64,000 nt of DNA from Shinella fusca (GTDB lineage Bacteria; Pseudomonadota; Alphaproteobacteria; Rhizobiales; Rhizobiaceae), in contig NZ_JACHIK010000002.1 in NCBI RefSeq assembly GCF_014203155.1, forward strand, positions 186,001 through 250,000. Direction: 5' to 3'. Of this stretch, positions 22,975-36,159 are shown piece after piece. The notes under the pieces are model-generated. The model did no database searches. It worked only from the letters and a program-made list of their open reading frames with translations, and was not told the DNA's origin. Every line of letters starts with the position of its first letter. Position 1 is the first letter of the stretch. The translations under genes were made by a program, and so were the position numbers.

Positions 22975-23838
22975 TCAGTCGCCGAGCGCCTGCCGGTCGT
23001 CGCCGTCGCGGCGGCGGACAAGCTCTTCCTTGATGCTGCGCAGGATCCTCGTCGCCTTCTCGCGATCCGCATAGGCGACGAGGTTGGCGAGGATGTCGAT
23101 GACGGCGAGATAGGCGTAGCGCGTCGAGGTGGGGCGGAAGATATTCCTGCCCTCCGGCAGGTCGACGGCAATGACGACGTCGGCCGCCTTCGCCACCGGC
23201 GAGCCGCTCTGCGTGACGACGATGGTGGGAACGCCTCGCCCGCGCGCAAGGTCGAGGCAGCGCACCAGCATCGGGTCGCGCCCGCTGAAGGACGAGCCGA
23301 AGACCACCGTGCCCGGCCCGGCGGCGGCGGCGAGCATGGCGTTCATGCCGTGGTCGCTGGAGGCGCTGACCGGGCAGCCGAGCCGGAAGAGCCGGTTGTG
23401 CAGTTCATGGGCCATCATCGCGGAATTGCCGCTGGCGCCGAAGGCATGGATGAAATCGGCCCCGCGCAGGAGATGCGCGGCCTTGCTCATCGCCGCGAGG
23501 TCGAGCTGGCGGTGCATCTGGAAAAGCGCGTTCTGCGCCTTGGCGACGATATCCTCGGCGACCTCCTCCGGCGTCTCGGTCGGCGTTTCCGGTGCGAAAT
23601 AGCGAAGGCCCACATAGGGCATCTTGGCGAGCTGCACCTTGAAATCGGGAAAACCCTGGCAGCCGAGCCGGCGGCAGAAGCGCGTCACCGTCGGCGGCGA
23701 GACGCCCGCCCGCTCCGCCAGATCGTTGATCGACGCGTTGACGGCAAAATCGATATCCTCCAGCACCAGGCGGGCGAGCGCCTTTTCCCGTGCGGAAAAC
23801 GTGCCCTCTTCGTCCGAAAGGGCGTGAAGAAGGTCCAT
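22975..23838 (-). CDS. RpiR/MurR family transcriptional regulator
   Basis: A 287-residue regulator. An N-terminal HTH_6 domain (about 1-77; SINDLAERAGVSPPTVTRFCRRLG) is joined to a SIS sugar-phosphate-isomerase domain (about 110-240; IHAFGASGNSAMMAHELHNRLFRLG and VVFGSSFSGRDP). Members sense phosphorylated sugars or related metabolites. AGGAGC lies 6 bases before ATG 23838; a longer frame from 23982 lacks such a site. It diverges from the MlrC-RidA genes and probably controls them from the 165-base AT-rich gap. Confidence 0.9.
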   Translation of the reverse strand: MDLLHALSDEEGTFSAREKALARLVLEDIDFAVNASINDLAERAGVSPPTVTRFCRRLGCQGFPDFKVQLAKMPYVGLRYFAPETPTETPEEVAEDIVAKAQNALFQMHRQLDLAAMSKAAHLLRGADFIHAFGASGNSAMMAHELHNRLFRLGCPVSASSDHGMNAMLAAAAGPGTVVFGSSFSGRDPMLVRCLDLARGRGVPTIVVTQSGSPVAKAADVVIAVDLPEGRNIFRPTSTRYAYLAVIDILANLVAYADREKATRILRSIKEELVRRRDGDDRQALGD

Positions 23839-24003
23839 GCATGCTCCTAACAGATGATGTGCCGTCCCGCCGTTCGTATCATACCCGGCGTGCCGCTTCA
23901 TATGTAAATTATTTTCATAAAATGGCATTCCGTATTGACGAAAACGGAGAAAATAGCTCATTTCTGAAAACAGATTACACATCGAACGTCAGGAATGATC
24001 GGC

Positions 24004-25497
24004 ATGCGCATCTTCACCGCGTCGCTCGCCACCGAGACCAACACCTTTTCCCCCGTGCCGACGGACCTCAACGCCTTCAAGGCGGCGTTCTATGCGGGGC
24101 CGGGAGAGCATCCGGAAACGCCGACGCTCTGCTCCTCCGTCGTGCCGATCCTGCGCCGGCGTGGGCGTGCCGAGGGTTTCACGGTCATCGAGGGCACGTC
24201 CTGCTGGGCGGAGCCGGCCGGCCTCATCCAGCGGCAGACCTATGAGGGCCTGCGCGACCTGATCCTCGGCGAGCTTGCCGCCGCTCTGCCCGTCGATGCC
24301 GTCGTGCTGGGCCTGCACGGGGCGATGGTGGCGCAGGGCTACCACGACCCGGAGGGCGATTTGCTGACCCGCATCCGCGATCTCGTCGGCCCCGGCGTAC
24401 TGGTCGCCGCCGAATTCGACCCGCACAGCCATCTGACGGCCAAGCGCGTCGAAAATCTCGACCTGATGGCGGCTTTCCTCGAATTCCCACATACGGATTT
24501 CGAGGAGCGCGGCGAGCATGTCGTCGATCTTGCGCTACGCACCCTGAAGGGCGAGATCCGCCCGGTCATCTCCACCTTCGACTGCCGGATGATCACCATC
24601 TACCCGACGAGCCGCGAGCCGATGCGCTCCTTCGTCGACCGGCTGAAGGCGCTGGAAGGGCGCGACGGCATCCTCTCCGTCTCCGTCATCCACGGCTTCA
24701 TGGCCGGCGACGTGCCGGAGATGGGAACGCGCATCGTCGTCGTCACGGACGGCGACAGGGCGAAGGGCGATGCGCTGGCGCAGCGGCTCGGCCACGAGCT
24801 TTACGGCCTGCGCAGGACGACCGCCATGCCGATGCTCGATACCGAGGCCGGCCTCGACCGGGCCATCACCATCCGCGCCGGGCGGCCGGAAAAGCCGGTG
24901 ACGATCGCCGATGTCTGGGACAATCCCGGCGGCGGCGTGGCGGGCGATGCGACGCATATCCTGCGCCGGATGATAGAGCGCGGCTTCGAGGACGTGGCTG
25001 TCGCGACGATCTGGGACCCCATCGCCGTCACCTTCTGCCATGCGGCGGGCGAGGGGGCGGAGCTGGCGCTGCGCTTTGGTGGCAAGTCGGGGCCGGAGGG
25101 CGGCGAGCCGCTCGACCTGCGCGTGACGGTCGAGCATGTCTTCGATGCCGGCTGGCAGAGCTTCCGCAACAGCCGCGTGACGCTCGGCAGCACGGCGGTC
25201 GTGCGCCCGGTCGGCACGAGCATCGACATCGTGCTGATCACAAGCCGCACCCAGACCTACGAGCCGGACATCTTCTCCAACCAGGGCGTGGATTTCACGA
25301 AGAAGGCCTTCCTGCTGGTCAAGTCGACCAACCATTTCCATGCCGGCTTCGAGCCGGTTTCCTCCGAGATCGTCTATATCGCCGCGCCGACCTCCTATCC
25401 GACCGATCCTGCGACGACCGCCTACCGCAAGGCGCGCCTCGACATCTGGCCGCGCGTCGCCGATCCGCTCGGGCTCGATCAGCCGATTTCCGGTTGA
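24004..25497 (+). CDS. M81 family (MlrC-type) metallopeptidase
   Basis: A 497-residue protein of the MlrC/microcystinase C family. Both halves of the family are present: the N-terminal M81 domain with LATETNTFSP, LGLHGAMV and the metal-site motif EFDPHSH (near residue 140), and the C-terminal MlrC domain with DNPGGGVAGDATHIL. In cyanotoxin degraders MlrC cleaves linear microcystin fragments, but rhizobial relatives most likely act on other amides or modified peptides. ATG 24004 is chosen because AGGA is 9 bases upstream; ATG 23995 touches that site. RidA follows after 54 bases. Confidence 0.9.
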   Translation: MRIFTASLATETNTFSPVPTDLNAFKAAFYAGPGEHPETPTLCSSVVPILRRRGRAEGFTVIEGTSCWAEPAGLIQRQTYEGLRDLILGELAAALPVDAVVLGLHGAMVAQGYHDPEGDLLTRIRDLVGPGVLVAAEFDPHSHLTAKRVENLDLMAAFLEFPHTDFEERGEHVVDLALRTLKGEIRPVISTFDCRMITIYPTSREPMRSFVDRLKALEGRDGILSVSVIHGFMAGDVPEMGTRIVVVTDGDRAKGDALAQRLGHELYGLRRTTAMPMLDTEAGLDRAITIRAGRPEKPVTIADVWDNPGGGVAGDATHILRRMIERGFEDVAVATIWDPIAVTFCHAAGEGAELALRFGGKSGPEGGEPLDLRVTVEHVFDAGWQSFRNSRVTLGSTAVVRPVGTSIDIVLITSRTQTYEPDIFSNQGVDFTKKAFLLVKSTNHFHAGFEPVSSEIVYIAAPTSYPTDPATTAYRKARLDIWPRVADPLGLDQPISG

Positions 25498-25551
25498 CGG
25501 ACGGCGTGAAAGCCTATGTCGCTTCCTGCAACACCACAGAGGAGAATCGCC

Positions 25552-25944
25552 ATGGCCGGACACGACGCCCCCTTCTTCATCGAGGATACGGACGAGAGCG
25601 AGATTTCCTCCGACGTCGCCGGCCTCGGCAACCTCCTGATGACGACGCATATCCCGCTCAGGGCCGACGGCTCCATCGAGACAGGCGATATCCGCACGCA
25701 AAGCACATGCACGCTGGAGAGCCTGAAGACCTCGCTGGAAAAGGCCGGCAGCAGCCTTGCCGACGTGATCCACCTGACGATCTACCTCACCGACATGGCC
25801 GAGCGCCCGGTCTTCAACGAGGTCTACTGCGCCTATTTCAAGAAGCCCTATCCGGTGCGCTGCGCGGTCGGCGTTAGCGCGCTCGCCGATCCCGGCATGC
25901 GCGTCGAGGTGACGGCGATGGCCGTGCGGCGCCGACCCGCCTGA
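25552..25944 (+). CDS. RidA family protein
   Basis: A 130-residue member of the YjgF/YER057c/UK114 family, which hydrolyses reactive enamine or imine intermediates. The C-terminal signature YPVRCAVGVSALADPGMRVEVTAMAV keeps the arginine and glutamate that bind and activate the carboxylate substrate in RidA-type enzymes. AGAGGAG precedes ATG 25552 by 7 bases. Its position after the MlrC peptidase suggests it clears an unstable amine-derived product of that pathway; the actual substrate is unknown. Confidence 0.88.
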   Translation: MAGHDAPFFIEDTDESEISSDVAGLGNLLMTTHIPLRADGSIETGDIRTQSTCTLESLKTSLEKAGSSLADVIHLTIYLTDMAERPVFNEVYCAYFKKPYPVRCAVGVSALADPGMRVEVTAMAVRRRPA

Positions 25945-26011
25945 CGGTTTCCTTTGACCCCCATCGCGCGGGCCGCTAGACGGGGCCAGCCGATTTCCGA
26001 TGGAGGTTCCG

Positions 26012-27325
26012 ATGAGCGATCTTTTCGACGCCGCGCCGCGCACCGGCTCCATGCCGCTTGCCGCCGAACTGCGCCCGGCGACGCTGGACGACGTCATCGG
26101 CCAGGAGAAGATCATCGGCCCCGGCACGATGCTGCGCCGGCGCATCGCCGCCGGCCGGCTCGGCAGCATCATCCTCTACGGGCCGCCGGGCCTCGGCAAG
26201 ACCTCCATCGCCCGGGCCATCGGCACCATGCTCGGCAAGAATTTCCGTCCGCTGCACGCCGCCCACAACAATGTCGCCGACATCCGCAAGATCGCCGACG
26301 AGGCGCGCATGCGCCCGACGCTGCTCTTCGCCGACGAGGTGCACCGCTTCAGCGCCACCCAGCAGGACCATCTCCTCGCCCTCTGCGAGGAGGGTGTCGC
26401 CGACTTCATCGGCGCGACGACGGGCAATCCCTACCACACGCTCACGCCCGCGCTGATCTCCCGCTCGACGATCCTGAAGCTGGAGCCGTTGAGCATCGAG
26501 GAGATGGAGGAGGTGGTGCGGCGCGGCCTTGCCCATCTTACGAACCAGGGCATCGAGGTTCAATTGGAGCCGGAGCAGCTTCGCCGCATCGCCGGCCGCT
26601 CCGGGGGCGACGCCCGCCGCGCGCTGACCGTGCTGGAGAGCCTTGCCGTCGGTCATGCGCCGGGAGAGCCGGTCGTCGTGACGGAAGCGATGGTCGAGGA
26701 GGCCTACGCGGCCGCGCCCGTCAACCACGACCGCATGGGCGATGCGCATTACGACGTCGTCTCGGCCTTCGTGAAATCCATGCGCGGCTCGGACCCCGAC
26801 GCCACGCTCTACTGGCTCGCCCGGCTCGTCCATGGCGGCGAGGACCCGCGCTACATCGCCCGGCGCATCATGATCCACGCGTCCGAAGACGTCGGCCTTG
26901 CCGACAACACCGCGCTCCAGACGGCCGTGGCGGCGCTGCATGCGGTGGAGAAGATCGGCTATCCCGAAGCGCAGATCGTGCTCGCCCATGCCGCGCTCCA
27001 CGTCGCCCGCGCGCCGAAATCCAATTCCGCCTGCCGCGGCATCTCGCTGGCGCTCGCCCATGTGGCGGCCGAACCGCCTTCCGCCGTGCCGATGCACTTG
27101 CGTGACGCCCACTACAAGGGCGCGGCCGCCCTCGGCCATGTCGGCTATGCCTTCCCGCATGACGACACGCGCGGCTGGAGCGAGCAGGCCTATGCGCCCG
27201 ACGTGCCGCGCGGCGCCTTCTACCAGAGCGATGCCCGGGATGCGGCGACCTTCGAGCGGCGCGCCGACGAGCACTGGGACGAGGTGACGGGACGTTCGAC
27301 GCCGCGCCGTTTCCGCAAGCGCTAG
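26012..27325 (+). CDS. rarA: Replication-associated recombination protein A
   Basis: A 437-residue AAA+ ATPase (RarA/MgsA, the bacterial WRNIP1 homolog) that acts at stalled replication forks with SSB. Walker A is GPPGLGKTS, Walker B is LLFADEVHRF, and sensor 2 is in GDARRALTVLE; the C-terminal half is the MgsA tetramerisation domain (HYDVVSAFVKSMRGSDPDATLYWLARL). GGAGG precedes ATG 26012 by 5 bases. Its stop codon shares CTAG with the convergent phosphatidyltransferase gene. Confidence 0.95.
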   Translation: MSDLFDAAPRTGSMPLAAELRPATLDDVIGQEKIIGPGTMLRRRIAAGRLGSIILYGPPGLGKTSIARAIGTMLGKNFRPLHAAHNNVADIRKIADEARMRPTLLFADEVHRFSATQQDHLLALCEEGVADFIGATTGNPYHTLTPALISRSTILKLEPLSIEEMEEVVRRGLAHLTNQGIEVQLEPEQLRRIAGRSGGDARRALTVLESLAVGHAPGEPVVVTEAMVEEAYAAAPVNHDRMGDAHYDVVSAFVKSMRGSDPDATLYWLARLVHGGEDPRYIARRIMIHASEDVGLADNTALQTAVAALHAVEKIGYPEAQIVLAHAALHVARAPKSNSACRGISLALAHVAAEPPSAVPMHLRDAHYKGAAALGHVGYAFPHDDTRGWSEQAYAPDVPRGAFYQSDARDAATFERRADEHWDEVTGRSTPRRFRKR

Positions 27326-27912
27326 GCGAGGCCCGCCCGCACGCGGTTGGCGACGGTCCAGGCAAGCAGCACGCAGGCGATGGGCTGGATGTGCCAGGTC
27401 CAGGCCGGCAGCGTGCCGAAGGCGGCGACGAGCGCGCCGAGCGCGCCGAAGAGCAGCGCCCGGTCGCTCTTGCCCATCGGCCCTTCGTAGCTGCGCCCCT
27501 TGCCGTGCGCGACGCCAAGCACGCCGGCAAATTCCGTCAACGCCGAGAGGAAGACGACGGCGGAAAGCCACGGCAGCGAGAAGGGCGCGACGAGCGCGAA
27601 GGGCGCATAGAGCGCGGCATCGGACACCACGTCGGCAAGCTCGTTGAGATAGCCGCCGAGCGGGCTTTGCTGGCCGTGCTCGCGGGCGAGCATGCCGTCC
27701 ACGGCGTTGAAGGCCATGCGCAGGAACATCCAGACCGGGACGAGCGCGAAGAGCGCAGGCCGCGGATCGAGCGCGAGAAGCGCGCCGATCCCCAGCGAGA
27801 CGACCGCCGCGACGATGGTCACCTGGTTGGCGGTGACGCCGAGCGCGGCGAGCCGCCCGACGAGCGGGCGCAGCAGGGACTGGAAGGAGGATTTCAGCTT
27901 GTAGATCGACAT
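27322..27912 (-). CDS. CDP-alcohol phosphatidyltransferase (YnbA-like)
   Basis: A 196-residue inner-membrane enzyme with about five to six hydrophobic helices that transfers a phosphatidyl group from CDP-diacylglycerol to an alcohol. The catalytic motif D-G-x2-A-R-x8-G-x3-D-x3-D is present as DGMLAREHGQQSPLGGYLNE... with asparagine in place of the third aspartate. The acceptor is unknown. It diverges from the hydrolase-methyltransferase gene that begins a lipid gene set equivalent to E. coli ynbBCD, so it is assigned as the YnbA member. The start at 27912 (MSIYKLKSS) is a choice; an in-frame ATG lies at 27981. Confidence 0.85.
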   Translation of the reverse strand: MSIYKLKSSFQSLLRPLVGRLAALGVTANQVTIVAAVVSLGIGALLALDPRPALFALVPVWMFLRMAFNAVDGMLAREHGQQSPLGGYLNELADVVSDAALYAPFALVAPFSLPWLSAVVFLSALTEFAGVLGVAHGKGRSYEGPMGKSDRALLFGALGALVAAFGTLPAWTWHIQPIACVLLAWTVANRVRAGLA

Positions 27913-28032
27913 GAAGGCGCGGTCCGCACGAGTATTCCCCTGAAAAGAAAGCCCAATCGCACGAAAATCAACTGCAAACATGCCCGCTCATCCGTATAGG
28001 TGGGGATGACATCGACGCAGAGGGAAGACGGC

Positions 28033-29769
28033 ATGATCGAAACGGCGTTCGCGAGCCATGACGGCGTGGAACTCTTCTACCGCCATTGGCCCGCCCGCTC
28101 CGGCACGGCGAAGGGCGCTGTCGTGCTCCTGCATCGCGGCCACGAGCATGGCGGCCGGGTGGCCCATATCGTGGAGGAACTGGGGCTCGACGATTTCGAT
28201 TTCTATGCCTGGGATGCGCGCGGCCACGGCCGTTCGCCGGGCAAAAGGGGCCATTCGCCGTCCTTCGCCCATTCGGTGCGCGACCTCGACTGTTTCGTGA
28301 AGCATATCGTCGAAACCGGGGGCTTCCCGATGGAGCGGATCGCCGTCGTCGCCCAGAGCGTCGGCGCCGTGCTGGCCGCGACCTGGGTGCACGACTACGC
28401 GCCTTCCATTCGTGCACTGGTGCTCGCCTCGCCCGCCTTCGACGTGAAGCTCTACGTGCCTTTCGCGAAAGAGGGCATTGCACTCTGGCAGAAGCTGAAA
28501 GGCCCGTTCTTCGTCAATTCCTACGTCAAGGCCCGCTTCCTGACGCACGATCCGGCGCGCATCGCCTCGTTCGAGGCCGATCCGCTGATCACCCGTCCCA
28601 TCGCCTCCAACATCCTGCTGGAACTCTACGAGGCGGCGGGCCGCGTGGTGGCGGATGCCCGTGCCATCACGGTGCCGACGCAGGTCCTCATCTCCGGCAG
28701 CGATTTCGTCGTGCGCCATGCGCCGCAGCACCGCTTCTTCGAAAATCTCGGCAGCACGATCAAGGAGCGCCACATCCTGCCCGGCTTCTACCACGACACG
28801 CTCGGCGAGCGGGACCGGGCCACGGCGCTGGAGAAGGTGCGGGCCTTCGTCACGGCGCGTTTCGTCGAACCGCCGGTCGTCGCCGACCTGCGGCAGGCGC
28901 ATCTTTCCGGCGCGACGCGCGACGAGGCCGACCGGCTGGCAAGCCCGCTGCCGCTTCTTTCTCCCCGAGGGCTCTATTGGGCGCTCACGCGGGCCTCGAT
29001 CCGCCTCGGCGGCCTCATCTCCAAGGGCATCGCCACGGGCCTTCGCACCGGCTTCGATTCCGGCTCGACGCTGGATTATGTCTATGAAGATGAGGCGCGC
29101 GGCCTCGGTCCCGGCGGGCGGCTGGTCGACCGGCAGTTCCTGAGCGCCATCGGCTGGCGCGGCATCCGCCAGCGCAAGGTCCATCTGGAAGAACTGATCG
29201 GCAGGGCGCTGGCGCGGCTTGCCGGCGAGGGCAGGCCGCTGCGCGTCCTCGACATCGCCGCCGGCCACGGACGCTACGTGCTCGACGCCGTCGCGGCCTC
29301 CGCGGCGAAGCCGGAAAGCATCCGCCTGCAGGATTATTCGCCGATCAATGTCGAGAAGGGCACGGCGCTGATCGCCGCGCGCGGCCTGCAATCCGTCGCG
29401 TCCTTCCGCCGCGCTGACGCCTTCGACACGGAAGGGCTGGCGCGGATCGATCCCAAGCCGACGCTCGCCATCGTCTCCGGCCTTTACGAGCTCTTCCCGG
29501 ACAATGCGCTGATCGAGGCCTCGCTTACGGGTCTTGCGCGGGCGATGGAGCCTGGCGCGCTGCTCGTCTATACCGGCCAGCCCTGGCATCCGCAGCTCGA
29601 GATGATCGCCCGGGCGCTGACGTCCCATCGCGGCGGGGCGGCATGGATCATGCGGCGACGCAGCCAGCAGGAGATGGACCAGCTCGTTACCGCCGCCGGC
29701 TTCCGCAAGATCGAGCAGCGCATCGACAGATGGGGCATCTTCACCGTGTCGCTGGCCGAGCGCGTCTGA
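28033..29769 (+). CDS. Bifunctional alpha/beta hydrolase-methyltransferase (YnbC-like)
   Basis: A 578-residue two-domain protein. Residues about 1-285 are a monoglyceride-lipase-like alpha/beta hydrolase with LLHRGHEHGGR, the nucleophile serine in AQSVG, an aspartate in SGSDFV and a histidine in GFYHDTLGE. Residues about 380-578 are a class I SAM-dependent methyltransferase (VLDIAAGHGRYVLDA, then LQDYSPINVEKG). The fusion is the mark of E. coli YnbC, whose biochemical function is not established. GAGGGAAG precedes ATG 28033. It leads a run of five coupled genes of lipid metabolism. A lysophospholipase or head-group-modifying role is inference. Confidence 0.88.
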   Translation: MIETAFASHDGVELFYRHWPARSGTAKGAVVLLHRGHEHGGRVAHIVEELGLDDFDFYAWDARGHGRSPGKRGHSPSFAHSVRDLDCFVKHIVETGGFPMERIAVVAQSVGAVLAATWVHDYAPSIRALVLASPAFDVKLYVPFAKEGIALWQKLKGPFFVNSYVKARFLTHDPARIASFEADPLITRPIASNILLELYEAAGRVVADARAITVPTQVLISGSDFVVRHAPQHRFFENLGSTIKERHILPGFYHDTLGERDRATALEKVRAFVTARFVEPPVVADLRQAHLSGATRDEADRLASPLPLLSPRGLYWALTRASIRLGGLISKGIATGLRTGFDSGSTLDYVYEDEARGLGPGGRLVDRQFLSAIGWRGIRQRKVHLEELIGRALARLAGEGRPLRVLDIAAGHGRYVLDAVAASAAKPESIRLQDYSPINVEKGTALIAARGLQSVASFRRADAFDTEGLARIDPKPTLAIVSGLYELFPDNALIEASLTGLARAMEPGALLVYTGQPWHPQLEMIARALTSHRGGAAWIMRRRSQQEMDQLVTAAGFRKIEQRIDRWGIFTVSLAERV

Positions 29770-29776
29770 GGCCGGC

Positions 29777-31111
29777 ATGGGGGAGGGCGTCGCACCCGTT
29801 CCGGTCCTGTCACGTCGCGCCGCCGTACGCGCGGCGGCGCTATGGCTCGCCGTCCTCGGGCCGTTCTTCTATCTTACCTACGGCACGTCGAACTGGCTGG
29901 CCTCGCTGCGCACGGACGTGCCGAACCTCGCCTTCGGCTGGGAGCGGCACATTCCCTTCGTTGCCTGGACGATCGTGCCCTACTGGTCGATCAACGTCTT
30001 CTACGCGCTTTCGCTCTTCGTTTGCGACACGCCGGAGGAGGTGGGGCGGCTGGCGCGGCGTTATCTTGTCGCGCAGGTGGTCGCCGTTCTCTGCTTCATC
30101 GCCTTTCCCCTGCGGGCGATCTTCGTGCGGCCGGAGACGCACGGCGTGCCGGGCTTCCTGTTCGACGTGCTCGGCGGTTTCGACAAACCGTTCAACCAGG
30201 CGCCCTCGCTGCATATCGCGCTGCTGGTGATCATCTGGGATCACTGGCGCGGGCGGCTGCGCGGCGCGTGGCGGACCGTCTGGCATGTCTGGTGCTTTCT
30301 GATTGGCCTTTCCGTGCTGACCACATGGCAGCACCATGCCATCGATATCCCGACCGGCGCGCTGCTCGGCCTCTTCGCCCTCTGGTTGTTTCCGACCGAA
30401 GGCCCCGCGCTGCCGTCCGGCTTTCGCCCGGCCGGGGAGCCGAAGGCCCGGCGGCTTGCCGCCTGCTACGCGGCGGGTGCGGCTATCTTCCTTGCCCTGT
30501 CGATAGCCGCCACGCGCATCACCGGCGCCGGCCTTCTCCTCCTCTGGCCGGCGCTTGCGCTGGCCATCGTCGCCTTCGCCTATGCCGGCGGCGGCGCGGA
30601 CGCGTTCCAGAAACGGCCGGACGGGCGCATCAGCCTTGCAAGCCGCTGGTTGCTGCTGCCTTACCGGCTCGGCGTGCGGCTCAACGTCCTCTGGTGGACG
30701 CGGCGGCTACCGGCGGCGGCGGAGATCGCGGACGGCGTCTTCCTCGGCCGCCTGCCGAGGAAGGGCGCGCTTTCCCCCTATGCCGCGGTGATCGACATGA
30801 TGGCGGAACTGCCGGGCGTGGCGCTGCCCGGCCTTGACTGGCACGCCTTTGCCTCGCTCGACCTGCTGCCGGTTCCCGTGGCGCGTCTCCGCGCGGCGGC
30901 CGATGCGCTCGATATCGCTCGCCGCCGCGGTCCCGTTCTTGTCTGCTGCGCGCTCGGCTTCCAGCGCAGCGCCCTCGTCGCCGCCTGCTGGCTGGTGCGG
31001 TCGGGGCTGGCCGGGAATGCCGCGGCAGCCGTCGAGCAGGTGAGGGCCGCCGGCCGGCCGGTGCGCCTTTCCCTCGCCGCCCATGCCCTCATCGAGGAGG
31101 CCGCGCGATGA
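29777..31111 (+). CDS. PAP2 / dual-specificity phosphatase fusion (YnbD-like)
   Basis: A 444-residue membrane protein with two phosphatase parts. The N-terminal half has about six membrane helices and PAP2 motifs (APSLHIALL and the TTWQHHAIDIPTG segment with H-x3-D), for dephosphorylating lipid phosphates. After further helices near 225-270, the C-terminal part (about 310-440) is a dual-specificity/tyrosine-phosphatase domain with the P-loop CALGFQRS (C-x5-R). The residue before the catalytic cysteine is cysteine rather than the usual histidine. It overlaps the next gene by 4 bases. E. coli YnbD has the same fusion. Confidence 0.87.
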   Translation: MGEGVAPVPVLSRRAAVRAAALWLAVLGPFFYLTYGTSNWLASLRTDVPNLAFGWERHIPFVAWTIVPYWSINVFYALSLFVCDTPEEVGRLARRYLVAQVVAVLCFIAFPLRAIFVRPETHGVPGFLFDVLGGFDKPFNQAPSLHIALLVIIWDHWRGRLRGAWRTVWHVWCFLIGLSVLTTWQHHAIDIPTGALLGLFALWLFPTEGPALPSGFRPAGEPKARRLAACYAAGAAIFLALSIAATRITGAGLLLLWPALALAIVAFAYAGGGADAFQKRPDGRISLASRWLLLPYRLGVRLNVLWWTRRLPAAAEIADGVFLGRLPRKGALSPYAAVIDMMAELPGVALPGLDWHAFASLDLLPVPVARLRAAADALDIARRRGPVLVCCALGFQRSALVAACWLVRSGLAGNAAAAVEQVRAAGRPVRLSLAAHALIEEAAR

Positions 31112-31533
31112 CGGATTTGTCGGCAATCGTCGCCCGCCTTCGCCGCCACGGCCTTGCAGGCGGGCTTCTCGCGGTGCTGATCCTCGCCGCCGCGCCGCCG
31201 ACGGCGGGCGCACACGGCTTTGCCGGGCCGCTTGCCTGGGGATTGCTGCTCGCCTTCTGCCTCCTGCCGCTCGCCCTTTCCGTCCATCTCGTCTTCGACG
31301 CCGCGCTCTTCCGTCTCGCCGCCTCTTATGGCACAGAAGAAGCGGGCCTTGCCGCGGTGGACGACGTGCTGGCGCGCATGGGCCTTCGCGAAAAGAGCCC
31401 CGCACCGGCTCCGCTTGCCGCACGCCTTGCCGGCTGCCGGCGGCTCGTGCGGCTGCAATGGGCCGCGCTCGCCGTCGCCCTTTGCCTCTATGCCGTCCTG
31501 CTGCTCGACGCGGCCGGGGGAGGCGGGGCATGA
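31108..31533 (+). CDS. Small membrane protein of the ynb-like operon
   Basis: A 141-residue protein of unknown function with three hydrophobic segments (about 15-33, 39-66 and 116-133) and a short amphipathic region between the second and third. Its start and stop overlap the neighbours by 4 bases each, so it is translated as part of the lipid gene set. No catalytic motif is visible. It could be a subunit or chaperone of one of the enzymes. Confidence 0.75.
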   Translation: MTDLSAIVARLRRHGLAGGLLAVLILAAAPPTAGAHGFAGPLAWGLLLAFCLLPLALSVHLVFDAALFRLAASYGTEEAGLAAVDDVLARMGLREKSPAPAPLAARLAGCRRLVRLQWAALAVALCLYAVLLLDAAGGGGA

Positions 31534-32171
31534 CGACGCTGCTGCAACGGGCTTCCGGCGCGGTTCTGGCGGTCCTGTCGCGCGCCGTCACCGGGGTGCG
31601 GCCGATCTGGGCCGGCGCGGCGCCGCGCGGCCGCCAGCGCATCTATTTCGCCAACCATGCAAGCCATGGCGACTTCATCCTCGTCTCGACCTGCCTGCCG
31701 CCGGCCGAGCGCGCCCGCACCGCCGCCGTCGCCGGCGCGGACTACTGGAATGGCGGCCCCGTGCGCCGCTTCATCGCGGGCCGGCTGCTGCGCACGGTTC
31801 TGGTCGAGCGCAACTGGGTGGAGCGTACGGCTGACCCCATGCAGGTCATGCTGGGTGCGCTCGACGCCGGCCAGTCGCTGATCTTCTTTCCGGAGGGCAC
31901 GCGCAACATGGGCGAGGCGCCGCTGCTGCGCTTCCGCTCAGGCCTCTACAACCTTGCCGCCGCGCGGCCGGACGTCGAGCTCGTGCCCTGCTGGATCGAG
32001 AACATGTCGCGCGTCCTGCCGAAGGGCGCGCTGCTGCCCGTGCCGCTACTCTGCCGCGTCGTCTTCGGCGCGCCGATGGCGCTGGAGGCGGGGGAAGACC
32101 GCAAGGCCTTCCTCGAGCGGGCGCGGCAGGCGCTTCTGGCGCTCGCGCCGAAAAGGGATGGAAACGGATGA
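31530..32171 (+). CDS. Lysophospholipid acyltransferase family protein (PlsC-like)
   Basis: A 213-residue acyltransferase of the PlsC/LPLAT superfamily. The catalytic H-x4-D is NHASHGDF (near residue 46) and the acceptor-phosphate motif is FFPEGTRN (near 116), followed by the PCWIENMSRVLPKG segment. It should acylate a lysophosphatidate-like substrate. The start overlaps the preceding stop by 4 bases. It supplies a reaction step directly before the CDP-diglyceride synthase encoded next. Confidence 0.88.
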   Translation: MTTLLQRASGAVLAVLSRAVTGVRPIWAGAAPRGRQRIYFANHASHGDFILVSTCLPPAERARTAAVAGADYWNGGPVRRFIAGRLLRTVLVERNWVERTADPMQVMLGALDAGQSLIFFPEGTRNMGEAPLLRFRSGLYNLAAARPDVELVPCWIENMSRVLPKGALLPVPLLCRVVFGAPMALEAGEDRKAFLERARQALLALAPKRDGNG

Positions 32172-33100
32172 ACGACGACACGACACGCCTCTTCCTCGGC
32201 CTCGTCGCCGTGCTTGCGACGGCAAGCCTCGTTGCGGGCGTGCTGTCCTGGCGCGCCGCAAAACCCCTGCCGTCGACGCTGGAAAACCTCAATGCGCGCA
32301 TCAAAGCCTGGTGGATCATGGTGGCGGGCATCAGCGTCGCCTTCCTCTTCGGCAAGGGCGGCGTGGTCCTGCTCTTCGCCTTCGTCTCCTTCGCGGCGCT
32401 GCGTGAATATGTGACGCTCACCAACACGCGCCGCGCCGACCGCTGGACGCTGCTCGGCATGTTCCTCGTCGTCATCCCGGTGCAATATTATCTCATCTGG
32501 ATCGACTGGTACGGGCTCTATTCCATCTTCGTGCCCGTCTACTGCTTCCTGGCCATGCCGGCGCTCACGGCGATCCGGGGCGACACCTCCCGGTTTCTCG
32601 AGCGGGTGAGCGAGCAGCAATGGGGCATCATGCTCTCGGTCTATTGCATCAGCCATGTGCCGGCGCTGGTGACGTTGCCGATTCCCGGCAACGAGGGCCG
32701 GGGCCTGCTGCTCATCGCCTTCCTCATCGCGACGGTGCAGGGCAGCGACGTGCTGCAATATATCTTCGGCAAGCTCTTCGGCCGCCACAAGGTCGCGCCG
32801 ACCGTCTCGCCGTCGAAGACCTGGGAGGGGCTGATCGGCGGCCTTGCCAGCGCCTCGCTGCTCGGCGCGGGGCTCTGGTGGCTGACGCCCTTCTCGCCGC
32901 TGGAGGCCGGAACGCTTGCCGCGCTTGCCGCCGTCATGGGCTTCTTCGGCGGCCTCGTCGCCTCCGCCATCAAGCGCGACCGGGGCGTCAAGGATTGGGG
33001 CCACATGATCGAGGGCCATGGCGGCATGCTCGACAGGGCTGACAGCCTCGTCTTCGCCGCGCCGGTCTTCTTCCACATCGTGCGCTATGCCTGGACGTGA
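32168..33100 (+). CDS. Phosphatidate cytidylyltransferase (CdsA/YnbB-like)
   Basis: A 310-residue integral membrane enzyme that makes CDP-diacylglycerol from phosphatidate and CTP. About eight helices are visible, and the C-terminal CDP-diglyceride synthase signature is clear: SPSKTWEGLIGGL near residue 218 and SAIKRDRGVKDWGHMIEGHGGMLDRADS (read in two parts) near 262-289. Order and coupling with the phosphatase, acyltransferase and phosphatidyltransferase identify it as the YnbB member rather than the housekeeping CdsA, which usually sits beside uppS and dxr. Confidence 0.9.
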   Translation: MNDDTTRLFLGLVAVLATASLVAGVLSWRAAKPLPSTLENLNARIKAWWIMVAGISVAFLFGKGGVVLLFAFVSFAALREYVTLTNTRRADRWTLLGMFLVVIPVQYYLIWIDWYGLYSIFVPVYCFLAMPALTAIRGDTSRFLERVSEQQWGIMLSVYCISHVPALVTLPIPGNEGRGLLLIAFLIATVQGSDVLQYIFGKLFGRHKVAPTVSPSKTWEGLIGGLASASLLGAGLWWLTPFSPLEAGTLAALAAVMGFFGGLVASAIKRDRGVKDWGHMIEGHGGMLDRADSLVFAAPVFFHIVRYAWT

Positions 33101-33204
33101 TCTTCACGGATTTGCGCCTGCGCGCGTTGCACTCCGCCGGCCTTTCGGGCATTGATGCCGCGCTGCCGCCATCCGGCAAAACCGTTCCCAGAAGGAGGAT
33201 TTCC

Positions 33205-33543
33205 ATGATCAAGCGTATCGAACCCGGCAAGCGCTTCTGCAAGGCCGTCGTCGTCAACGGCATCGTCACCACCGCCGGCGTCACGGGCGAAGGCGCCGAC
33301 GCCACGGCGCAGACCCGCGACATCCTCAACCAGATCGACGGCCTGCTTGCCAAAGCCGGCACGTCCAAGGCCAAGCTCCTCAGCGCCAATATCTGGCTGC
33401 GCGACATCGCCCATTTCGCCCAGATGAACGACGTGTGGGACAAGTGGGTCGACCCGGACAACCTGCCGGTACGCGCCACCGTCGAAGCCCGCCTCGCAAC
33501 GCCCGAGCTCCTCGTGGAGATCCAGGTAACCGCGCTCGTCTGA
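33205..33543 (+). CDS. RidA family protein
   Basis: A 112-residue YjgF/UK114-fold protein, a second RidA-type member in this window. The C-terminal part LPVRATVEARLATPELLVEIQVTAL keeps the arginine (RATVEARL) and the glutamate of the active-site pocket. AGGAGG precedes ATG 33205 by 6 bases. It differs clearly from the 130-residue protein at 25552-25944, being shorter at the N-terminus. Probably an enamine/imine deaminase; substrate unknown. Confidence 0.85.
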   Translation: MIKRIEPGKRFCKAVVVNGIVTTAGVTGEGADATAQTRDILNQIDGLLAKAGTSKAKLLSANIWLRDIAHFAQMNDVWDKWVDPDNLPVRATVEARLATPELLVEIQVTALV

Positions 33544-33701: not shown

Positions 33702-35018
33702 TCAGAGCGTCTTCAGCACATCGGCGAGGCCGTCGACCAGCATGTCGGCGTTCTCGCGCGAGAAGACGAGCGGCGGGCGGATTTTCAGGACGTTCGCCCG
33801 CGGGCCGGAGGCGCTGATGAGAATGCGCCGTTCGCGCAGGCCGTTGACGATGCGCGTCGTCAGCGTCGCGTCCGGCGATTTGGCCGCCGGGTCGGCGACG
33901 ATCTCGACGCCGACGAAGAGGCCGGAGCCGCGCACGTCGCCGATGGCGTGATAGCGGTCGGTAAGGCTTTCAAGCCCCTCCCTGAGGTAGCGGCCGACCT
34001 CAAGCGCATTTTCCTGCAGGCCTTCCTCGCGGATCGTGTCCAGCACCGCCTTGCCGGCGGCGGCGGCGACGGGGTTGCCGCCGAAGGTGTTGAAATAGCG
34101 GGCGCGCGGGCCGAACTCGGCGACGACTTCCGGCCGCAGCACGATGCCGGCCATGGGATAGCCGTTGCCCATCGGCTTGCCGATCGTCACCATGTCAGGC
34201 TGGACGCCGTGGCGCTCGAAACCCCACATCGCTTCGCCCGTGCGCCCGAAGCCGGGCTGCACCTCGTCGGCGACGAAGAGGCCGCCGGCCGCATGGATGG
34301 CGTCTACCGCGGGCTTGAGGAAGCCTTTCGGGCCGGCGAAGATGCCGTCGCTCGAAAAGATCGTGTCGGTGATCAGTATGGCCGGCTTGATGCCGTGGCG
34401 CTTGAGGTCGTCGATGGCCGCCTGAACGTCGCGGCCGAATTTCTCCATCATCACGTCCGGCGCGTGGCGGTAGCTGTCGGGCGCCGGCACGGTGCGCACA
34501 TGCGGGCCGAGCGTCACGGCCTCGCCGAGCGAGGGGGAGAACTCGGCGACGGCGCTCGTCAGGCCGTGATAGGCAAGGTCCGTGGCGATGATGCCGGTGC
34601 CGCCCGTCACGAAGCGGGCGATGCGCACGGCAAGGTCGTTCGCCTCGCTCCCCGTGCAGGTGAACATCGCCTGGCTGAGGGTTTCGGGGAAGGTCGCCGT
34701 CAGCGCCTCGGCATAGTCGACGATGCCCTCGTGCAGGTAGCGCGTGTGGGTGTTGAGCACGGCAGTCTGCGCGTTGATGGCCTCTACCACGCGCGGGTGG
34801 CAATGGCCGAGCGAGGCGACGTTGTTGTAGGCGTCGAGATATGTTTCGCCCGCAGCGTCGTAGAGGAAGACGCCTTCGCCGCGCACGAGGTGCAGCGGTT
34901 TTTCGTAGAACAGGCGGTAGGCCGGGCCGAGCACCTTTTCCCGGCGGGCGATGAGCGCCCGGTCGGCCTCGCTCAGCCGCTCGAAATCCTCGCGCGAAAA
35001 TGCATTCACCATCGACAT
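33702..35018 (-). CDS. Class III PLP enzyme, AGXT2L-type phospho-lyase
   Basis: A 438-residue fold-type I class III PLP enzyme. The segment [21 protein letters not shown], then [23 protein letters not shown] and [17 protein letters not shown] (each read separately) closely resembles human AGXT2L1/AGXT2L2, which are ethanolamine-phosphate and 5-phosphohydroxylysine phospho-lyases, not transaminases. The PLP aspartate is in [14 protein letters not shown] and the lysine in [11 protein letters not shown]. The ATG follows the kinase stop by 2 bases (TGATCATG) with GAGG upstream. With that kinase it would phosphorylate an amino alcohol and then eliminate phosphate and ammonia. The substrate is inferred. 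Confidence 0.85.
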
Positions 35019-35020
35019 GA

Positions 35021-36070
35021 TCAGGCCTCGGAAAGGTTGGGCACGAGCCGTTTCAGCCCGGCGGGAGTGAGATCGGATATGTTCTGCAAGCCGCGCCAGG
35101 AGGTGGCGTGGTTGCGCATGATGTAGTCGCGGTTTTCCGGAAACAGCGCGGAACGCCATTCGGCGATGACGACCGACATGGTGAGCCGGGCGCGCAGGAG
35201 AAGCGGCAGGACCGCGATCTCCTCCGGCGCCAGCGGGCGGGCCGACAGGAAGCCTTCGAGGAAGGCGCTGGCGCGGGCCGCCCAGTCGTCCGTCGCCAGA
35301 TGATAGGACAGGCCGACGGCAAGGTCGTTGACGAGCGGCGCGTGCACCATGTCGCCGAAGTCGATGATGCCGACCACTTTGCTCGGCTCGGCCGGATCGA
35401 GCAGGATGTTGTGCGGGTTGAAGTCGTTGTGGATGATCTGCCGGCGTGGCAGGGCGGCAAGGGCGGGCAGGGCGCGCTCGAATTCGGCGAGCACGGCGCC
35501 GGTCGCCGCCTGCCGCTCCGGCGCGACGTGGCCGGCGACGGCGACGAGGTCGAGCGTGTGGGAGATGTCCCACATCAGCTTTCCGGCCGGCGGGCGGCCG
35601 TCATAGCCTTCGAGGCCAAGCCCGAGCTCGGCGAGCGCCCGGCCGACATTGCGGCTCTGCTTTTCGCCCGGCGGCGTGCGGTATTGCAATTCGCCGGGCA
35701 GGAAGGTGAGGAGCCGCATGATGCGCGGGCCGTCGGCGGTGGCGAGCGTGTGGCTGGGCGCGCCGGCACGCGTCGGCACGAGGCGCGGCACGGGCACGGC
35801 GGGCGCGGCCGCTTCGAGGTGCAGCAGCGCGCCGTCCTGGAATTGCAGCGCCGCCGGGTCCTCGGCGGGATTGGCGATCTTGAGCACGAAGGGTGTGCCG
35901 TCTTCCCGTGTGAAGAGGAAGGTCTCGTCCCGTTCGCTGGACAGGCGCTTGACGGTGCCGTCGTGTCCATAGACCGCGGCCACGGCGGCGCGCGCGTCGT
36001 CGAGCGTCGTCGGGTTCCACGTCGCGGACATGGAATCGGCCGCGCGGGCGGCGGGCGGTGAGTGTGTCAT
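35021..36070 (-). CDS. Hydroxylysine kinase-like phosphotransferase
   Basis: A 349-residue kinase of the aminoglycoside/choline phosphotransferase fold. The catalytic loop is IIHNDFNPHNILLD (Brenner motif) and the metal-binding aspartate is in GIIDFGDMVHAPLVNDLAV, a form shared with the hydroxylysine kinase HYKK/AGPHD1. ATG 36070 is chosen since GGGAG is 5 bases upstream; 36082 and 36031 are alternatives. Its stop nearly touches the start of the phospho-lyase, so the two are made together. 5-hydroxylysine or another amino alcohol is the expected substrate; resistance to drugs is unlikely from this context. Confidence 0.82.
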   Translation of the reverse strand: MTHSPPAARAADSMSATWNPTTLDDARAAVAAVYGHDGTVKRLSSERDETFLFTREDGTPFVLKIANPAEDPAALQFQDGALLHLEAAAPAVPVPRLVPTRAGAPSHTLATADGPRIMRLLTFLPGELQYRTPPGEKQSRNVGRALAELGLGLEGYDGRPPAGKLMWDISHTLDLVAVAGHVAPERQAATGAVLAEFERALPALAALPRRQIIHNDFNPHNILLDPAEPSKVVGIIDFGDMVHAPLVNDLAVGLSYHLATDDWAARASAFLEGFLSARPLAPEEIAVLPLLLRARLTMSVVIAEWRSALFPENRDYIMRNHATSWRGLQNISDLTPAGLKRLVPNLSEA

Positions 36071-36159
36071 GCTGGCTCCCATGCGCAGGCCGCATCGCCT
36101 TTGAACTGCTGCCCGCGAGGCGTCGAAAACGGCCCGCAGACTTGAAACCCGTCAAAAAA

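What the first reader, a model, noticed from the sequence alone, without database searches (positions are those of the whole stretch)
27322..33100. Expanded ynbABCD-like lipid gene set with two extra members
Six genes encode a CDP-alcohol phosphatidyltransferase, an alpha/beta hydrolase fused to a methyltransferase, a PAP2 fused to a dual-specificity phosphatase, a small three-span protein, a PlsC-like acyltransferase and a CdsA-like enzyme. The last four are chained by 4-base overlaps. The two unusual fusions match E. coli YnbC and YnbD. The E. coli locus has no settled overall function, although YnbB has CDP-diacylglycerol synthase activity as far as I recall. Here the acyltransferase and the small membrane protein complete a route from lysophosphatidate to CDP-diacylglycerol to a head-group transfer, with hydrolase and phosphatase for remodelling. 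This looks like a self-contained pathway for an undescribed phospholipid or glycolipid.
Basis: partly seen in the sequence, partly recalled or inferred. Interest (0 to 1): 0.8.

Follow-up and report, generated by a model that had tools for sequence, protein, structure and literature searches.

The report
Six-gene lipid cluster for membrane defence
Six neighbouring genes that look like a private phospholipid factory are the same set that helps another bacterium survive membrane-cutting toxins from rivals, and the key enzyme carries an odd, strongly conserved change in its metal site that makes its unknown lipid product worth finding.

Summary
The six genes are real and correctly named: CDP-alcohol phosphotransferase (A), lipase-methyltransferase (C), PAP2-dual-specificity phosphatase (D), small membrane protein (S), PlsC-like acyltransferase (P), CdsA-like enzyme (B). 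D/S, S/P and P/B overlap by ATGA. 'Expanded E. coli set' should be turned round: A, C, D, P and B occur together in 64 of 76 long named loci, while E. coli ynbABCD lacks S and P. It is not undescribed: proteins and order match P. aeruginosa PA2541-PA2536, the Gac/Rsm-controlled arc1A-F operon that protects against type VI secretion attack, arc1A against lipase effectors (PMC8926400, PMC12663445). Its lipid is unknown; I found no paper linking arc1 and ynb. New here: A has asparagine at two metal-binding aspartates of its family signature in 126 of 126 aligned homologues (one far, partnerless homologue differs), while the catalytic base and phosphate-binding arginines remain; A+P+B also occurs without C and D; A and C are fused in Methylobrevis. 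Likely a dedicated phospholipid line that helps survive membrane attack; product and step order are inferred. New member of a known kind, with a sharp enzymological question.

The parts
27322..27912 (-). A: YnbA/Arc1A homologue, divergent relative of class I CDP-alcohol phosphotransferases, 196 aa; Asn69 at D1 and Asn90 at D3 of the signature, Asp72 (D2), Asp94 (D4), Lys148/Arg151 and Arg190 kept
28033..29769 (+). C: YnbC/Arc1B homologue, monoglyceride-lipase-like alpha/beta hydrolase (S109, D224, H254) fused to a Methyltransf_20 domain, 578 aa
29777..31111 (+). D: YnbD/Arc1C homologue, PAP2-like membrane part (H146, H186, D190) fused to a dual-specificity phosphatase part (D362, C391, R397), 444 aa
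31108..31533 (+). S: small membrane protein of unknown function, 141 aa, three long helices and a short one in the model; D64, F68, D85, R106 conserved
31530..32171 (+). P: PlsC-like lysophospholipid acyltransferase, 213 aa
32168..33100 (+). B: YnbB/Arc1F homologue, CdsA-like CTP:phosphatidate cytidylyltransferase, 310 aa; second such gene in the genome

Best explanation
This is the Shinella-type copy of a widespread locus known as arc1A-F in P. aeruginosa and, without S and P, as ynbABCD in E. coli. It encodes a second, dedicated phospholipid line. P acylates lysophosphatidate to phosphatidate; B makes CDP-diacylglycerol; A moves the phosphatidyl group to a small alcohol that itself carries a phosphate; D removes that phosphate with its dual-specificity domain and may act on another lipid phosphate with its PAP2 part; C trims acyl chains from a lysolipid or an acylated head group and methylates the product or its precursor; S is an accessory membrane protein, perhaps of D. 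The lipid, or the flux through it, helps the cell survive lipase attack by rivals. Shown here: gene identities, order, co-occurrence, conserved active-site residues (D1 and D3 of A excepted), and sequence and order match with PA2541-PA2536. Reported by others: the defence role of arc1 in P. aeruginosa and CDP-DAG synthesis by E. coli YnbB. Inferred: the order of steps, the phosphorylated acceptor, the roles of C and S, and the defence role in this organism.
For: Gene order and proteins match PA2541-PA2536: A 57, C 63, D 50, P 53, B 61% identity to the window; S found with the Burkholderia copy as query, 29% over 110 residues. arc1 mutants are less fit under T6SS attack and two deletions in the operon are not additive; arc1A mutants are more sensitive to V. 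cholerae and to A. baylyi carrying only the lipase Tle1. Co-occurrence: 27 of 27 C carriers among 398 Pseudomonadota genomes have A, 26 of 27 have full-length D. A, B and P stay together in 8 of 10 genomes that have A but no C, so PA supply, CDP-DAG synthesis and transfer form the core. A-C fusion in L092. A is nearest in sequence to PIP synthases among solved structures and keeps the acceptor-phosphate arginines R155 and R195 of PgsA1 in 28 of 28 aligned rows (roles). D keeps D362, C391 and R397 in 119 of 119 rows.
Against: A has Asn at D1 and D3 (126 of 126); Ala at these positions lowers activity in Cho1, so A may work differently. A lacks the equivalents of R94 and K135 of PgsA1. E. coli YnbD did not complement PGP- or C55-PP-phosphatase deficiency. 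Loss of ynbB had no clear effect and YnbB could not replace cdsA. In the eLife study no single B. thailandensis effector mutation relieved the arc1 defect and only one Arc1 gene contributed to Tle3 defence beyond the cut-off; in PMC12663445 arc1A is auxiliary to arc3A. 11 of 76 long loci, all Rhizobium, lack P and/or B beside A-C-D-S. E. coli has D without S and P. Defence in Shinella is untested; Gac/Rsm control was not examined there.
Confidence: 0.45

Rival explanations
1. Phosphatidylglycerol resynthesis: A is an alternative PGP synthase (acceptor glycerol-3-phosphate) and D a PGP phosphatase, so the locus rebuilds ordinary PG after lipase damage.
For: The eLife authors note four arc1 products resembling PG-synthesis enzymes. 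A keeps phosphate-binding arginines but lacks R94 and K135 of the inositol-phosphate enzyme, which would fit a smaller phosphorylated acceptor.
Against: E. coli YnbD fails as PGP phosphatase. A scores 18.5 bits against the PgsA model, cut-off 109. It leaves the methyltransferase of C without a job.
Confidence: 0.2
2. Lysolipid clean-up: the working parts are C (lipase), P (reacylation) and D; A and B only feed the recovered phosphatidate back into ordinary lipid synthesis.
For: C's hydrolase domain is monoglyceride-lipase-like, with PldB lysophospholipase L2 its best NCBIfam match, far below the cut-off. arc1A protects against lipases.
Against: A is the most constant companion and the gene whose deletion was tested. 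A+B+P occurs without C. Prevention of lysophospholipid build-up was shown for Arc3, not Arc1 (abstract, passages).
Confidence: 0.12
3. A is no longer a phosphatidyltransferase: with D1 and D3 changed it binds CDP-DAG as a scaffold or regulator for B, C and D.
For: Asn at two metal ligands in 126 of 126 rows; A-C fusion in L092.
Against: D2 in 126 of 126 and the presumed base D4 in 125 of 126 are kept, as are G1, A, R and G2 and the acceptor arginines; a dead enzyme would not be expected to keep them.
Confidence: 0.1
4. A glycolipid primer pathway like MPIase: B makes a sugar-pyrophosphate-diacylglycerol and the other genes process it.
For: Overproduced YnbB raises MPIase in E. coli.
Against: Deleting ynbB does not change MPIase noticeably; ynbB was not needed for ECA-PG synthesis; no glycosyltransferase was seen among the conserved flank clusters printed; it does not explain A.
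Confidence: 0.05

Closest known systems
P. aeruginosa arc1A-F (PA2541-PA2536); eLife 2022 PMC8926400 and Nat Commun 2025 PMC12663445
   Same: All six homologous genes in the order A-C-D-S-P-B; Asn at D1 and D3 of A (row L179_A).
   Different: In the window A is on the opposite strand, divergent from C-D-S-P-B. Gac/Rsm control and the defence phenotype are known for P. aeruginosa only.
E. coli ynbABCD
   Same: A, B, C, D homologous, including the two unusual fusions; Asn at D1 and D3 of YnbA (row L005_A).
   Different: Order A-B-C-D; no S and no P beside them.
PIP synthases (M. tuberculosis PgsA1, PDB 6h53; Renibacterium PIPS)
   Same: Nearest solved structures to A by sequence (2e-7; 1.3e-10 as profile); R155 and R195 kept, Lys for R152.
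   Different: D1 and D3 are Asn in A; R94 and K135 not kept; NCBIfam PIP synthase model 50.3 bits against a cut-off of 170.
Sister group A' (L160-L173), unnamed in the searches made here
   Same: Asn at D1 and D3 in 14 of 14; a B homologue within 1.9 kb in 13 of 14 (positions); P and B both present in 8 of 8 regions fetched, of 14 A' genes. Profile match to A 99.4%.
   Different: No Arg in the AR position; keeps R94 and an Arg at K135; a separate clade.

Membership tests
arc1A-F locus of P. aeruginosa | Six homologous genes A, C, D, S, P, B in that order | tested here: met
   window order the same with A divergent; S match weak (seen with the Burkholderia copy as query)
arc1A-F locus of P. aeruginosa | Protects against T6SS and lipase attack | not testable with these tools
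   Reported for P. aeruginosa; no data for this organism
arc1A-F locus of P. aeruginosa | Control by Gac/Rsm | not tested
   Reported for P. aeruginosa; not examined in the window's genome
ynbABCD locus of E. coli | Lipase-methyltransferase fusion and PAP2-DSP fusion together with CDP-alcohol phosphotransferase and CdsA-like genes | tested here: met
Class I CDP-alcohol phosphotransferases (A) | Overall sequence similarity to the family | tested here: met
   PF01066 37.5 bits, cut-off 22; PDB matches
Class I CDP-alcohol phosphotransferases (A) | Signature D1xxD2G1xxAR...G2xxxD3xxxD4 | tested here: not met
   D1 and D3 are Asn in the window and in 126 of 126 rows; the other six signature residues are present. 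I therefore call A a divergent homologue, not a canonical member
PIP synthase (A) | NCBIfam equivalog cut-off | tested here: not met
   50.3 bits, cut-off 170; archaetidylinositol phosphate synthase 71.1, cut-off 180
PIP synthase (A) | Inositol-phosphate site: R155 and R195, and R94 and K135 of PgsA1 | tested here: inconclusive
   R155 and R195 kept in 28 of 28, R94 and K135 not kept; the alignment near K135 is gapped
PGP synthase PgsA (A) | NCBIfam TIGR00560 cut-off | tested here: not met
   18.5 bits, cut-off 109.1
PGP phosphatase (D) | Activity on phosphatidylglycerophosphate | not testable with these tools
   E. coli YnbD did not complement a PGP-phosphatase-deficient strain
CTP:phosphatidate cytidylyltransferases (B) | Pfam CTP_transf_1 above cut-off | tested here: met
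   231 bits, cut-off 24; below the E. coli CdsA equivalog model, 109.9 against 385
Anti-phage defence systems (PADLOC) | Convincing match of any of the six proteins | tested here: not met
   Only methyltransferase-domain matches of C: mad2 1.5e-6 and MTase_II 0.016

The most novel reading that the evidence does not exclude
YnbA/Arc1A and its sister group A' are a mechanistically new branch of CDP-alcohol phosphotransferases: two of the four metal-binding aspartates are fixed as asparagines, so the enzyme works with a one-metal or less charged centre and makes a phosphatidyl lipid not yet described. It usually travels with its own acyltransferase (P) and CDP-DAG synthase (B) as a three-gene lipid module to which different finishing genes are added: C-D-S in arc1/ynb, a VTT-like small membrane protein in some other genomes. 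In the arc1/ynb form the lipid is a phospholipase-resistant or repair lipid against injected lipases.
Probability: 0.3. Interest if true: 0.75.

Novelty: new member of a known kind. Interest (0 to 1): 0.5.

Why it matters
Two separately studied loci, ynbABCD of E. coli and arc1 of P. aeruginosa, turn out to be one family. That lends a defence phenotype to the enigmatic ynb genes and gives the arc1 phenotype a chemistry to test. The conserved Asn/Asn in A gives one sharp question: does this enzyme transfer phosphatidyl groups with an altered metal centre, and to what acceptor? The A+P+B core names the smallest set of proteins to express in order to find the lipid.

Tried and rejected
Anti-phage or prophage reading: PADLOC gave only weak methyltransferase-domain matches of C and S, P and B gave no PHROGs match (A, C and D were not sent). 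Extra pathway genes in the flanks: comparison of 5445 flank ORFs gave no specific further partner among the 14 widest clusters printed; the widest (23 loci, 8 groups) is a generic ABC ATPase, and one cluster was S itself. Structure of S: confident model (pLDDT 90.9) but no PDB match with E <= 0.001. Structure of C: 49 of the 50 listed matches are alpha/beta-hydrolase-type entries by title, the other is 3ocj, so the relatives of the methyltransferase domain were not resolved. Tree of A, A' and ordinary CDP-alcohol phosphotransferases: A and A' are each one clade, but their order relative to the Asp/Asp enzymes is unresolved because of long branches, so one or two origins of Asn/Asn cannot be told apart. 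Literature by annotation phrases: no paper held three of six phrases. MPIase synthesis as the main role: set low because ynbB loss does not change MPIase noticeably in E. coli.

Rows dropped or special. L003 was left out of the family alignments (it repeats the window) and L005, L006 and L024 were entered once only. One far homologue, L143 (G345, 42% identical, no partner recognised in 16.6 kb), has Ala at D1 and Asn at D3 and was not among the 126. L145 (G169) is a broken copy. L047 has D and S hits split over two pieces each. L031 lacks D and S together; L066 has D but no S. In one search, 19 of the 45 genomes with a D match have only a partial match.
Full report
THE OBSERVATION. I call the genes A (27322-27912, minus strand), C, D, S, P and B. 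Pfam places A in CDP-alcohol phosphotransferases, C in Hydrolase_4 plus Methyltransf_20, P in acyltransferases and B in cytidylyltransferases; D matches DSPc and PAP2_3 weakly, below the cut-offs; S matches nothing. E. coli K-12 has ynbA-ynbB-ynbC-ynbD in that order, without S and P. Window C is 56% identical to YnbC and window A 47% to YnbA.

THE HOST. Of 17 plasmid records in which one place covers at least 80% of the stretch, 13 are Shinella (best 83.4% identity), so the window is probably from Shinella or a close relative. In the window's genus 18 of 20 sampled genomes carry the methyltransferase family of C, and 0 of 16 genomes from 16 other genera of the family do; a second sample found 4 carriers in the same family in two further genera. 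The window's genome has a second CTP_transf_1 protein, three other PF01066 proteins and two T6SS VipB-type genes on the same contig about 70 kb away.

HOW COMMON. In the 76 longer ones A is present in 76, C in 76, D in 75, S in 72 by script (74 with L089 and L091 seen), B in 66, P in 65; A, C, D, P and B together in 64, all six in 61 by script. They come from Alphaproteobacteria, Betaproteobacteria and one Acidobacteriota genome. The commonest order is A-C-D-S-P-B, with A in line or divergent as in the window. The 11 long loci that lack P and/or B are all Rhizobium by title. All 11 of those genomes have a B homologue, in one (L041) at the edge of the same locus. In three of them fetched around B, P lies beside B, and in one (L176) a different CDP-alcohol phosphotransferase-like gene, A', is recognisable beside P-B.

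CO-OCCURRENCE. In a sample of 398 Pseudomonadota genomes, 27 carry C. All 27 also carry A at 49% identity or more to the window, and 26 carry D over nearly its whole length; no genome of the sample has such a D without C, and 19 more have partial matches only. Ten further genomes carry A without C at 42-60% identity. Of these ten, eight have A, B and P side by side, one has A and B in a broken state, one has A alone. Three of the ten (L137, L138, L141) add a small membrane protein; the L137 copy is weakly VTT-like (E 1.6e-6, below the cut-off), the L141 copy had no Pfam match. The core thus looks like A+B+P, with C-D-S an addition. D and S are missing together in L031, where C is followed directly by P and B. 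In L092 (Methylobrevis) A and C form one 799-residue ORF, which suggests that the two act together.

IT IS ARC1. From memory PA2541-PA2536 of P. aeruginosa looked like the same set, so I tested it. A primer printed for deletion of PA2541 in PMC8926400 occurs in 1 of 25 genomes of one genus, exactly over the start codon of an A homologue, and part of a second primer lies over its stop. Behind it follow C, D, S, P and B; identities to the window are A 57, C 63, D 50, P 53, B 61%, and S is found with the Burkholderia copy as query (29% over 110 residues). That operon was named arc1A-F in 2022. I read the outline, sections 5 and 6 and passages of PMC8926400. It is Gac/Rsm-controlled, needed for fitness against the T6SS of B. 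thailandensis, not needed under heat, peroxide, salt or detergent stress, and the authors note that four products resemble PG-synthesis enzymes. No single effector mutation they tested relieved the arc1 defect, and only one Arc1 gene contributed to Tle3 defence beyond their cut-off. Passages of PMC12663445 add that arc1A mutants are more sensitive to V. cholerae, less so when TseL is inactive, and to A. baylyi carrying only Tle1, with a role auxiliary to arc3A. The main text of the eLife paper does not contain 'ynb'. A library search for papers with two of ynbA, ynbB, ynbC, PA2541, PA2536 and Arc1A found 5; in none do the listed counts pair a ynb name with an arc1 name.

WHAT IS KNOWN OF THE E. 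COLI PARTS. Passages of PMC6362211 and PMC7018664: YnbB makes CDP-DAG in vitro and raises MPIase when overproduced, cannot replace cdsA, and its deletion has no clear effect. Passages of PMC7413402: YnbD fails to complement PGP-phosphatase or C55-PP-phosphatase deficiency and has no assigned function.

THE ODD ENZYME A. Class I CDP-alcohol phosphotransferases carry D1xxD2G1xxAR...G2xxxD3xxxD4. In PgsA1 the four Asp (D68, D71, D89, D93) bind two metals and D93 is the presumed base (passages of PMC6506517, and PMC4634129). In A, D1 is Asn69 and D3 is Asn90 in 126 of 126 rows, while D2 is kept in 126 and D4 in 125 (22 of the rows are from the window's genus). The three other PF01066 proteins of the window's genome have Asp at D1 and D3, as do the enzymes I saw of Table 1 of PMC8727905; in that paper Ala at D1, D3 or D4 of Cho1 impairs function (passages). 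One far, partnerless homologue (L143) has Ala at D1 and Asn at D3. On an alignment with PgsA1, 28 of 28 A rows have Asn for D31, and keep T34, R155 and R195; Lys stands for R152; R94 and K135 are not kept. R155 and R195 are assigned to the acceptor's phosphate in the PIP synthase papers. My reading is an acceptor that carries a phosphate but is not inositol phosphate. A sister group A' also has Asn at D1 and D3 (14 of 14), with a B homologue within 1.9 kb in 13 of 14 (positions) and P and B present in 8 of 8 regions fetched; profile comparison supports kinship with A (99.4%). The tree keeps A and A' as separate clades and does not resolve whether the Asn pair arose once.

THE OTHER PARTS. C: the hydrolase part is modelled close to monoglyceride lipases; triad candidates S109, D224 and H254 are kept in 126, 127 and 127 of 128 rows, and D407, G411 and G413 of the methyltransferase motif in 128 of 128 (roles recalled from the families). 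D: H146, H186 and D190 of the PAP2 part in 123 of 123, D362, C391 and R397 of the phosphatase part in 119 of the 119 rows that reach the C-terminus, of 123 (roles recalled). S: three long helices and a short one, modelled with confidence, no fold match.

MECHANISM. Most likely P and B supply CDP-DAG for A; A forms a phosphatidyl-alcohol-phosphate; D takes off a phosphate; C trims and methylates; the product or the flux helps against lipase attack. Only identities, order, co-occurrence and conservation are shown here. The lipid, the step order and the role in Shinella are inference. The main arguments against the simple reading are the Asn pair in A and the failure of YnbD as PGP phosphatase.

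VERDICT. As a locus it is a new member of a known kind; the conserved Asn/Asn centre and the A+P+B core are the parts that could surprise a specialist.

Noticed in passing
window 25516-25944 and 33097-33543: Two RidA-family (Ribonuc_L-PSP) genes stand on either side of the region.
   Followed up: no
window 22975-25497: An RpiR-type regulator (minus strand) beside an M81 metallopeptidase of the MlrC type (plus strand).
   Followed up: no
window 26000-27325: A RarA/MgsA-type AAA ATPase gene runs towards A; the two genes end tail to tail with a 4-base overlap (27322-27325, coordinates).
   Followed up: no
window 33702-36082 (minus strand): Overlapping ORFs for a class-III aminotransferase and an APH-type kinase.
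   Followed up: no
G000:C2:289349-291800 (outside the window): Two VipB-type T6SS genes on the same contig, about 70 kb from the six genes.
   Followed up: no
L160-L173, L180-L187: A second group of CDP-alcohol phosphotransferase-like proteins (A') with Asn at D1 and D3 and no Arg in the AR position, beside PlsC-like and CdsA-like genes; PF01066 did not match one of two sent.
   Followed up: partly
L147 10208-12361: A 717-residue WG-repeat protein lies between C and D in this genome.
   Followed up: no
L006 (Burkholderia ambifaria record NZ_CP066768.1): The six genes lie on a 19-kb record called a plasmid, with P-B divergent from A-C-D-S and beside bcsB and bcsZ.
   Followed up: no
window 29777-31111, C-terminal half of D: Matches NCBIfam PRK12361 (2.7e-19, far below its cut-off); many of the partial D matches are to the same part of D in ORFs of about 540-570 residues.
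   Followed up: no
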